From NCBI GenBank assembly GCA_003559095.1, contig PWMW01000285.1, positions 1 to 64,000 of the forward strand: 64,000 nucleotides of DNA. Direction: 5' to 3'. Positions 11,638 to 63,335 of this stretch are shown here, one piece after another (within the stretch, counting starts at the first letter, position 1; each line of letters opens with the position of its first letter). The notes beneath the pieces are model-generated. The model made no database searches. It was not told the origin of the DNA and worked only from the letters and a program-made list of their open reading frames with translations. Both the position numbers and the translations under genes were made by a program. This DNA is from Clostridiales bacterium (lineage in GTDB: Bacteria > Bacillota > Limnochordia > Darwinibacteriales > B1SED10-159).

Positions 11638-11656
11638 CGGAATTCGCTAATTTGTA

Positions 11657-11678
11657 GCTCACCTGGTACCTGGGAATA
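11657..11678. repeat. Single copy of the TACCTGGTA palindromic repeat
   Basis: The stretch around ACCTGGTACCTGGGAA resembles one unit of the tandem near-palindromes clustered at 31.0, 52.8 and 63.2 kb. It lies between the esterase stop and its terminator. Confidence 0.45.
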
Positions 11679-14161: not shown

Positions 14162-14333
14162 GCATGTCCGTCCTCTCGTCTACGGGGTTCGGTTTGGCTT
14201 AATGATGTTGGGTCTTTCAGTGAAGTACTGCAGACTAATGCTCGACAACTGCGCTATTGCGCTGGGGGTCGTACCTTGGTTCCTTCAACTGCACCCAAAG
14301 AGTAGTGCCCTCGCCGGGGAACAACCACCCAAA

Positions 14334-14829
14334 GTGTCCACGCCAATACCCTTGTGCATAGGCCATCTTAGGTGTTCGTGGTCACGGAAATCCCGATGAA
14401 CGGGATTTCGCGGTTCCTGTTTGACGTATCCATGATACCTGCAAGGTGGACTCCAAGGTGTCCACGCCAATACCCTTGTGCATAGGCCATCTTAGGTGTT
14501 CGTGGTCACGGAAATCCCGATGAACGGGATTTCGCGGTTCCTGTTTGACGTATCCATGATACCTGCAAAGTGGACTCCAAGGTGTCCACTCCAATACTCT
14601 GGTGCACGAGCAATCTCAGGTGTTCGTGGTCACGGAAATCCCGATGAACGGGATTTCGCGGTTCCTGTTTGACGTTTTCATGATACCTGCAAAGTGGACT
14701 CCAAAGTGTCCACTCCTAACTCTGGTGCACGGGCCATCTTCGGTGTTCGCGGTCACGGAAATCCCGATGAACGGGATTTCGCGGTTCTTGTTCGGCGTGT
14801 CCATGATACCTTCAAGGTGGACACCTGGA
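14334..14829. repeat. Four tandem 124-bp repeats with conserved hairpins
   Basis: Four copies begin at 14334, 14458, 14582 and 14706 with an exact 124-bp period. The first two are nearly identical and the last two carry scattered changes. Each contains a perfect hairpin, GAAATCCC-gatgaac-GGGATTTC (14387-14409, then at +124 steps), unchanged in all four. Across each unit junction there is a second inverted repeat, GTGGAC...GTCCAC. The array fills the gap between a TIM-barrel gene and the 3' end of the metalloprotease gene and contains no gene with a ribosome site. Confidence 0.95.
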
Positions 14830-31034: not shown

Positions 31035-31256
31035 TTTTTCCAGACACCTGGTATGAGGGAATTTTTTCCAGCTACCTGGTGCATGGTAATTTTTTCCTTC
31101 TACCAGGTATATGGAATACATTTCCAGCTATCTATCAGGCACATGGAATACATTTCCAGCTAACTGGTACATGGTAGGATTTTCCAGCTACCAGGTACCT
31201 GGCAACTTCTTCCATCTACCAGGTACATGGAACATATTCCCAACTACCAGCCCCCC
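31035..31256. repeat. Cluster of 23-bp near-palindromes, seven to eight copies
   Basis: Copies begin near 31035, 31063, 31090, 31122, 31153, 31181 and 31208, with a partial one near 31238. Each has TTCCA, then a TACCWGGTA-like core, then TGGAA or a variant; the copy at 31210-31232 is almost perfectly self-complementary. Copies are separated by short A/T-rich text. The cluster occupies the gap upstream of the phosphohexomutase gene, beyond its ribosome site. Confidence 0.88.
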
Positions 31257-31318
31257 AGCAGAGGCTCGGCCCCCAGCAGAGGCTCAGTCACAGCAGAGGC
31301 TCGGCCCCCAGCAGCAGC
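31246..31318. repeat. CCCAGCAGAGGCTCGG minisatellite, four copies
   Basis: Four imperfect 18-19-bp units run directly up to the stop codon of the phosphodiester glycosidase gene at 31320, abutting the palindrome cluster. Confidence 0.85.
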
Positions 31319-38150: not shown

Positions 38151-38210
38151 ACCATCCGGTGGGTAACCATCCGGTGGGTAATCATCCCGTGGGTAATCAT
38201 CCGGTGGGTA
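38151..38210. repeat. 15-bp tandem repeat, four copies
   Basis: Four units ACCATCCGGTGGGTA (two perfect, two with one or two changes) fill the 104-bp gap between the GNAT stop and the APH-like start. Each unit contains the short palindrome CCGG. Confidence 0.92.
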
Positions 38211-39050: not shown

Positions 39051-39110
39051 CTGTACAGCACCTCCTTAATCTGAACTAGGTACGTTTATTCACATTTCTC
39101 CGATATCCCA

Positions 39111-39360
39111 TATTCTTCCACATACCAGGTAAAAACAAAACCAAACAGAACAGGCAAACCAATTCCTCCAAACCATGCTCATCCGTGGCCGCCCCACGAC
39201 TGGCATCGTTCTATCCATATTCTTCCACATACCAGGTGAAAATAAACCCAAACAGAACAGTCAAACCAAATTCTCCAAACCATGCTCATCCGTGGCCGCC
39301 CCACGACTGGCATCGTTCTATCAATATTCTTCCACATACCAGGTAAAAACAAATCCAAAC
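39111..39360. repeat. 107-bp tandem repeat containing TACCAGGTA half-sites
   Basis: Copies start at 39111 and 39218, with a partial third at 39325, at an exact 107-bp period and over 90% identity by eye. Each starts TATTCTTCCACATACCAGGT, which is a half of the near-palindromic repeat seen at 31.0, 52.8 and 63.2 kb. The remainder of 39361-39509 is A/C-rich and shows no gene. Confidence 0.93.
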
Positions 39361-40410: not shown

Positions 40411-40420
40411 AACTATTCTC

Positions 40421-40577
40421 GAACTTCCATCCACAACTCTTACTGCGAACTTCCATCCACAACTCCTACTGCGAACTTCCATCCACAACTCCTACTGCGA
40501 ACTTCCATCCACAACTCCTACTGCGAATTTCCATCTATAAATGCTGCTTCGAACCTCCAAGCCATAGCTCCTGCTGC
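40421..40577. repeat. 26-bp tandem repeat, six copies
   Basis: Four near-identical 26-bp units (GAACTTCCATCCACAACTCC plus TACTGC) start at 40421, 40447, 40473 and 40499, followed by two diverged ones. Immediately after (about 40588-40670) come imperfect GCACTGCTCTGGCG repeats. No gene lies in 40287-40734. Confidence 0.93.
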
Positions 40578-40734
40578 GCAGATCCACTCGGGCGGCACTG
40601 CTGTGGCGGCACTGCCCTGGCAGCACTGCTCTGGCGGTTCTACTCTGGCAGCTCTGCTCCAGCAGTTCCCTTATCCTGCTCAATCCAGTTGATCCGATTC
40701 TGGATCCGAGCTTCCCTTCCGTGAGCAAGTTGCT

Positions 40735-51889: not shown

Positions 51890-52014
51890 TTATTGGGGGT
51901 TGTTGGCCTCGTTGGGGTTGTTGGCCTCGTTGGGGTTGTTGAATTGTTGGGGTTGATGAGTTTCTGGGTTTGAAGAGTTTCTGGGTTTGATGAGTTTCTG
52001 GGTTTGATGGTCCC
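51890..52014. repeat. GTTGTTGGCCTCGTTGGG and GAGTTTCTGGGTTTGAT minisatellites
   Basis: About three 18-bp units (51892-51950) are followed by three 17-18-bp units (51955-52009). The array ends at the stop codon of CutC. The whole 51692-52015 gap shows no gene. Confidence 0.92.
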
Positions 52015-52795: not shown

Positions 52796-52943
52796 CATAC
52801 CTTGACCACATACCAGGTAACTTCCAGGTTCTTCCACGTACCTGGTAACTCCCAGGTTCTTCCACAGGTAACTTCCAGACCCTTCCACATACCTGGTAAC
52901 TTCCAAACTTTTCCACATACCAGGTACATGGGAAAACTTCCAC
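52796..52943. repeat. Cluster of TACCWGGTAACTTCC repeats, six copies
   Basis: Units CCACRTACCWGGTAACTTCC-AGGTT repeat at 24-29-bp steps from 52803 to 52943; one copy has lost its centre (52861-52880). It is the same family as the 31.0- and 63.2-kb clusters, but with GTAACTTCC in place of the second half. It lies directly 5' of the cutC ribosome site. Confidence 0.88.
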
Positions 52944-63161: not shown

Positions 63162-63335
63162 TTCCATCTACCTGGTGCATGGAAAAAAATTCCAACGTAC
63201 CTGGTATGTGGAAATTATTACCAGATACTTGGTACGTGGAAGTAATTCCCAGATACCTGGTGCATAGCAGTTATTTCCAGATACCTGGTGCATGGAAGTT
63301 ACTCCCAGGTACCTGGTGCATGGGAATGTTTCCCA
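63162..63335. repeat. Cluster of 23-bp near-palindromes, six copies
   Basis: Six units at about 28-29-bp spacing begin near 63162, 63190, 63218, 63247, 63275 and 63303, with a partial one after. The first (63162-63184) reads TTCCATC-TACCTGGTGC-ATGGAA and is self-complementary in its outer and inner arms. Spacers are short and variable, rich in A/T. The rest of 62825-63489 shows no gene beyond the -10 candidate, and a G-rich stretch at 63060-63140. Confidence 0.92.

What the first reader, a model, noticed from the sequence alone, without database searches (positions are those of the whole stretch)
63162..63335. Dispersed near-palindromic repeat family (TTCCA..TACCWGGTA..TGGAA)
Six copies here and others at 31.0, 39.1, 52.8 kb and possibly 11.66 kb share a 23-bp unit that is almost its own complement, arranged in tandem at 26-33 bp with short variable spacers, always between genes and never inside one. 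The near-constant spacing of about 28-29 bp suggests protein binding on one face of the helix, or a REP/BIME-like mobile repeat. This is the most likely candidate for an undescribed repeat system in the window.
Basis: partly seen in the sequence, partly recalled or inferred. Interest (0 to 1): 0.75.

Follow-up and report, generated by a model that had tools for sequence, protein, structure and literature searches.

The report
Transposase-linked palindromic repeat arrays between genes
A bacterium of the class Limnochordia carries about 200 copies of a short near-palindromic DNA repeat between its genes, mostly in tandem at exactly 28 letters; the repeat core matches the one that flanks a family of tamed transposase genes, whose only member in this genome sits beside one of the arrays, so the repeats are probably a lineage-specific offshoot of that transposase system.

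Summary
About 200 copies of TTCCAnnYACCWGGTRnnTGGAA lie in about 66 intergenic arrays of the 4.18-Mb genome. The pattern gives 155 strand hits against 0 for its reversed control. Copies in tandem are spaced exactly 28 bp: 109 intervals, against one of 29. The family occurs in this genome and one congener (a Limnochordia MAG), not in the same-family relative or more distant genomes beyond chance. Arrays sit between genes of any orientation and unrelated function.

The only IS200/RAYT-type (HUH, Y1) transposase gene in the genome (G000:C42:9141-9830) lies 239 bp from an array. Seven of nine homologs in its clade are flanked by palindromes with the same centre (GGTRCCWGGYACC); none of 20 RAYTs outside it are. 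One such genome, G120, has about 25 dispersed copies. I read this as a lineage-specific REP/TIR-like family descended from a RAYT/TIRYT system, grown in place by 28-bp duplication. Its core is conserved while neighbouring positions are randomised.

It is not a classical REP: no GTAG tag, weak hairpin potential, half-sites do not covary, and outer arms can be inverted. That points to recognition as double-stranded DNA. 28 bp is 2.67 helical turns, so the "one face" idea fails.

The parts
63162..63325 (.). array of 6 type-I units (TTCCA-nn-TACCWGGTR-nn-TGGAA), 28-bp period (one interval of 29)
31038..31232 (.). array of 6 units; a seventh at about 31122-31148 is broken by a 4-bp insertion; a half-unit follows at 31238
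   Evidence: the orthologous intergenic region in congener G001 (L097) has 1 unit
39116..39352 (.). three units with degenerate right halves, each carried on a copy of a 107-bp tandem repeat
52804..52933 (.). array of 4 units, mostly with direct arms (TTCCA...TTCCA), plus one unit with a 5-bp deletion in the core (about 52860-52877)
11653..11675 (.). single degenerate unit, core CACCTGGTA, right arm TGGGA; weak
   Evidence: 18.4 bits

Best explanation
This is a lineage-specific, REP/TIR-like family of short palindromic repeats that descends from, and is probably still recognised by, a RAYT-type (HUH, single-tyrosine) transposase of the TIR-associated kind. The functional unit is a 23-bp site: core TACCWGGTA plus a TTCCA pentamer on each side at fixed distance. 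Inferred steps: (1) units spread between genes as non-autonomous palindromes mobilised by the RAYT or its ancestor; (2) single units then grow in place by tandem duplication in 28-bp steps (23-bp site plus 5 bp of A/T-rich spacer); (3) the core and the 28-bp phase are kept by selection for recognition as double-stranded DNA by a dimeric protein (the RAYT or a partner), while spacer and nn positions drift. Shown here: the genome-wide family, intergenic location, exact phase, core constraint, in-place copy-number difference between two species, and the link between the RAYT clade and the CCWGG core. Not shown: mobilisation, binding, and which protein binds.
For: The only Y1_Tnp gene in the genome (L042:9141-9830+, NCBIfam NF047646 REP_Tyr_transpos E=3e-17, intact NHYH and RYVHQNP motifs) lies 239 bp downstream of a 5-unit array. 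By chance about 3% of genes flank an array. A half-unit AGGTATGTGGA abuts its start codon. Seven of nine clade homologs carry GGTRCCWGGYACC at the gene borders, against 0 of 20 RAYTs outside the clade; G120 also has about 25 dispersed copies. Four loci share an array position between G000 and G001 with different unit numbers (6/1, 2/1, 4/1, 5-7/1). Adjacent 28-bp cells differ 9.7% at conserved but 47.9% at variable positions. Decayed units lie at array edges. Location is independent of gene orientation and function.
Against: The NCBIfam hit is below its curated cut-off (62.8 against 80 bits). The RAYT is flanked on one side only, whereas RAYTs are described as bracketed by two inverted REPs. 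It lacks the C-terminal HTH region of its homologs, and no separate copy of that region is found. No RAYT was found in congener G001, which has about 30 sites, although that genome is only 79% complete. P0001's exact position inside the clade is poorly resolved (fork 83/65, long branch). The arms differ between lineages (TTCCA against AAGTTnGG); only the core is shared.
Confidence: 0.6

Rival explanations
1. The arrays are cooperative binding sites of a dedicated genus-specific dimeric DNA-binding protein with a chromosome-wide role (nucleoid organisation, silencing or partition-like), unrelated to the RAYT. The fixed 28-bp phase builds a helical protein filament, three units per eight turns.
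For: Exact 28-bp phase despite non-conserved spacers. Core constraint in situ. No hairpin covariation, consistent with a dsDNA dimer site. Gene-orientation-neutral placement.
Against: No binder identified. The core is shared with RAYT-flanking palindromes in other families, which a private binder would not predict. Many arrays are single units.
Confidence: 0.2
2. Operators of a global transcription factor controlling a regulon.
For: Palindromic site with four conserved blocks; 10 of 58 arrays are in divergent promoter regions.
Against: Seven arrays lie between convergent genes. In tandem contexts arrays are as close to the upstream stop (median 144 bp) as to the downstream start (157 bp). Flanking genes have no common function.
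Confidence: 0.07
3. Passive minisatellites: short repeats that expand by slippage in a genome prone to intergenic tandem repeats, with no function and no mobiliser.
For: The window holds many unrelated intergenic tandem repeats (124, 107, 26, 18 and 15 bp periods). Neighbouring units are more alike than units of different arrays (0.50 against 0.32 at variable positions).
Against: The same 23-bp unit recurs in about 66 unrelated places. The core is conserved five times better than adjacent positions within arrays. Indels that would break the phase are rare. Slippage explains growth, not dispersal or core constraint.
Confidence: 0.1

Closest known systems
TIRs of TIRYT / TIRtrons (Di Nocera 2013, PMC3733652), equated with TnpAY1 subclass 2.1 (Quentin 2018, PMC6006769)
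   Same: RAYT-like gene with NHYH and YxHxNP motifs; flanking self-complementary repeats with moderately abundant dispersed, clustered copies; the homologs carry a C-terminal HTH-like extension like subclass 2.1.
   Different: TIR core is RCC-W-GGY, not GGGGWSAS. About 200 copies in strictly 28-bp-phased tandem arrays. Here the RAYT has lost the C-terminal extension and has repeats on one side only. Quentin 2018 found no REP-like sequences near subclass 2.1 genes.
Classical REP/BIME with RAYT (Nunvar 2010, PMC2817692; TnpAREP)
   Same: High-copy (over 100) intergenic palindromes, species-specific, clustered, next to a single-copy RAYT; core co-varies with the RAYT clade.
   Different: No GTAG/CGTC tag, weak hairpin, no alternating REP orientation, RAYT not bracketed by two inverted REPs, no preference for convergent or downstream positions.
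REPINs (Bertels and Rainey 2011, PMC3116915; title and abstract seen only, details from general knowledge)
   Same: Short palindromic repeats tied to a RAYT and spread between genes.
   Different: REPINs are paired inverted REPs about 100 bp long; here the unit is a 23-bp near-palindrome in head-to-tail arrays.

Membership tests
Classical REP (GTAG/CGTC superfamilies) | 20-40 bp palindrome, high copy, intergenic | tested here: met
   23 bp, about 200 copies, 153 of 157 strong units outside CDS
Classical REP (GTAG/CGTC superfamilies) | conserved unpaired GTAG or CGTC tag at one end | tested here: not met
   Flanking 5 bp carry only 0.24-0.47 bits per position, A/T-rich, no tag
Classical REP (GTAG/CGTC superfamilies) | stem-loop formation, maintained by pairing | tested here: not met
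   Mean DNA MFE -2.3 kcal/mol; re-dealt halves fold better in 98% of permutations; positions 6/18, 7/17 and 8/16 pair less often than expected
RAYT/REPtron | genome encodes a HUH/Y1 RAYT | tested here: met
   P0001: PF01797 E=9e-8, NF047646 E=3e-17 but below cut-off; clade profile hits TnpArep structure 4er8 E=0.003
RAYT/REPtron | gene bracketed by two cognate repeats in inverted orientation | tested here: not met
   Array only upstream plus a half-unit at the start codon; none downstream. Met in homologs L131-L134
RAYT/REPtron | repeat sequence co-evolves with the RAYT clade | tested here: met
   GGTRCCWGGYACC in 7 of 9 clade homologs, 0 of 20 outside; P0001's array shares TACCWGGTA
RAYT/REPtron | RAYT-bearing strains have more repeats than strains without | tested here: inconclusive
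   G000 with RAYT about 200 units (121 sites at 2 mismatches), G001 without RAYT found 30 sites, but G001 is 79% complete and n=2
TIRYT / subclass 2.1 | C-terminal HTH-like extension | tested here: not met
   Present in homologs (277-321 aa), absent in P0001 (229 aa)
RAYT/REPtron | RAYT cleaves or binds the repeat | not testable with these tools
   needs biochemistry

The most novel reading that the evidence does not exclude
A transposase-derived repeat family has been turned into a chromosome-wide system of phased protein-binding arrays. The units are held at exactly 28 bp by selection, so that dimers polymerise along the DNA in a helical register (three units per eight turns), with invertible outer arms read by a flexibly tethered domain. 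The RAYT that seeded it has lost its own DNA-binding extension.
Probability: 0.2. Interest if true: 0.75.

Novelty: new variant of a known kind. Interest (0 to 1): 0.47.

Why it matters
RAYTs with a C-terminal HTH (subclass 2.1/TIRYT) were reported to lack REP-like repeats nearby. Here a clade of them has a distinct flanking palindrome (GGTRCCWGGYACC) and one lineage has amplified the core into about 200 phased units. That gives a testable system for how RAYT-linked palindromes spread, how their recognition core co-evolves with the protein, and whether domesticated RAYTs act on double-stranded sites rather than hairpins.

Tried and rejected
CRISPR-like array: spacers are only 5 bp and units vary, so rejected. 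RNA hairpin, terminator or riboswitch: no Rfam match, no covariation. Phage or plasmid origin: no two-unit match in IMG/VR, no match in PLSDB. Spread across bacteria: exact pattern in GTDB gives Limnochordia MAG contigs plus 4 single sites, about the number I estimate by chance. Regulon: flanking Pfam families almost all singletons. A separately encoded copy of the lost C-terminal HTH in G000: none. RAYT orthologous region in G001: the neighbouring gene was not found there, so loss and incompleteness cannot be told apart. A longer shared element around the arrays: all-against-all of masked flanks found mostly orthologs, one duplicate locus and short marginal matches. Literature on the motif: nothing relevant. 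Structure prediction was not attempted because the RAYT comes from outside the allowed sources.

Full report
Observation. The six units at 63162-63325 are real and belong to a genome-wide family. In the home genome (G000, 4.18 Mb, 421 contigs) TACCWGGTRNNTGGRA occurs 155 times on both strands against 0 for the reversed control. I fetched the sequence around the hits; a PWM finds 211 units against about 1 per shuffle. 197 units in 66 groups remain after dropping weak singles.

Anatomy. The unit is TTCCA-nn-YACCWGGTR-nn-TGGAA, 23 bp, odd centre W, followed by 5 bp of A/T-rich spacer. Core positions 9-15 are 96-99% conserved apart from the central W. Intervals between neighbours are 28 bp in 109 cases and 29 in one; larger gaps are scattered. 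Inside the window the odd gaps come from indels in a decayed unit (60 = 28+32, 51 = 28+23). The outer arm can be inverted: 153 units have inverted arms, 39 direct TTCCA..TTCCA, 12 direct TGGAA..TGGAA, 2 reversed. 28 bp is 2.67 helical turns, so neighbouring units do not face the same way.

Constraint. Between neighbouring cells of the 28-bp lattice, degenerate ones included, conserved positions differ in 9.7% and variable positions in 47.9%. Variable positions are more alike within arrays (0.50) than between arrays (0.32), the mark of tandem duplication, while core identity is the same in both (0.84). Just outside arrays there are more half-decayed units than at shifted positions. So arrays grow by 28-bp duplication and shed units at the edges, while the core is held. 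The last step is an inference; a process that creates units with new spacers would look similar.

Not a hairpin. Symmetry-related positions do not covary: 6/18, 7/17 and 8/16 are complementary less often than when re-dealt. Single-stranded folding is weak and would be better if halves were re-dealt. No GTAG or CGTC tag is present. This favours reading as double-stranded DNA, probably by a dimer.

Placement. Arrays lie between tandem (41), divergent (10) and convergent (7) genes, equally far from the upstream stop and the downstream start. Flanking genes share no function.

Distribution. Of 61 genomes searched (G000 and 60 relatives) only G000 and congener G001 carry the family (one isolated hit in G036), and of 13 at two mismatches again only these two. 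G001 has about 30 sites, mostly single; its two pairs are 28 bp apart. At four loci with matching neighbour genes both species have units at the same place, e.g. 6 in the window at 31 kb against 1 in G001. So positions are inherited and array length changes in place.

RAYT link. About 116 of roughly 3,700 genes (my estimate) flank an array, so adjacency alone has a chance of about 3%. The protein (229 aa) matches REP_Tyr_transpos with E=3e-17, below the curated cut-off, and keeps the HUH and tyrosine motifs. A half-unit abuts its start. The stronger evidence is comparative. Among homologs across the phylum, seven of the nine in the same well-supported clade (99/96) have GGTRCCWGGYACC, within one mismatch, close to the gene; none of 20 homologs outside do, where other palindromes such as GGGGACAGTCCCC occur. 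I count p near 1e-4 by Fisher's test, treating two near-identical loci as one. In G120 the gene is bracketed by AATAAGTTCGGTACCWGGTACCGAACTTATT and the genome has about 25 sites in all. The core TACCWGGTA is therefore shared between the home arrays and an independent RAYT.

Known families. Clade members are 277-321 aa with a C-terminal HTH-like extension, as in subclass 2.1/TIRYT (PMC6006769, PMC3733652). P0001 lacks it and no separate copy is encoded. Against the classical REP definition two features fail (tag, hairpin), so I do not file it as a REP. It works like a RAYT-associated dispersed repeat and is closest to TIR families of TIRYTs, in which self-complementary, clustered repeats are described.

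Limits. G000 and G001 are incomplete MAGs. The absence of a RAYT in G001 is inconclusive. Gene calls are from my own simple caller. No binding or mobility is shown.

Noticed in passing
window 14329-14822, 40420-40578, 31252-31314, 38151-38210, 51896-52009: Many unrelated tandem repeats (124, 26, 18, 15 and 17-18 bp periods), mostly outside predicted genes; this genome seems generally prone to tandem duplication.
   Followed up: no
window 39108-39360: A 107-bp tandem repeat (2.4 copies) carries one half-degenerate unit per copy, so a unit was swept into a larger duplication.
   Followed up: partly
L062:1-860 and L081:1-860: Two contig ends of G000 share an array-bearing locus at about 90% identity; strain variants in the MAG or a duplicated locus. 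The units are conserved in both.
   Followed up: partly
L129-L134, L136 (RAYT homologs across the phylum): A RAYT clade flanked by AATAAGTT-n-GGTRCCWGGYACC palindromes, a flanking-repeat type different from the published GGGGWSAS TIRs; G120 has about 25 dispersed copies.
   Followed up: partly
L042:9141-9830: The home RAYT lacks the C-terminal HTH-like extension that all close homologs have.
   Followed up: yes
proteins flanking arrays (alignment A1): Five of 58 flanking proteins carry GGDEF domains; possibly more than expected, not tested against the genome count.
   Followed up: no
L120-L126 (RAYTs of the same order): RAYTs of genomes of the same order are flanked by GGGGACAGTCCCC / GGGGTCNGACCCC palindromes, the known TIR type.
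   Followed up: no
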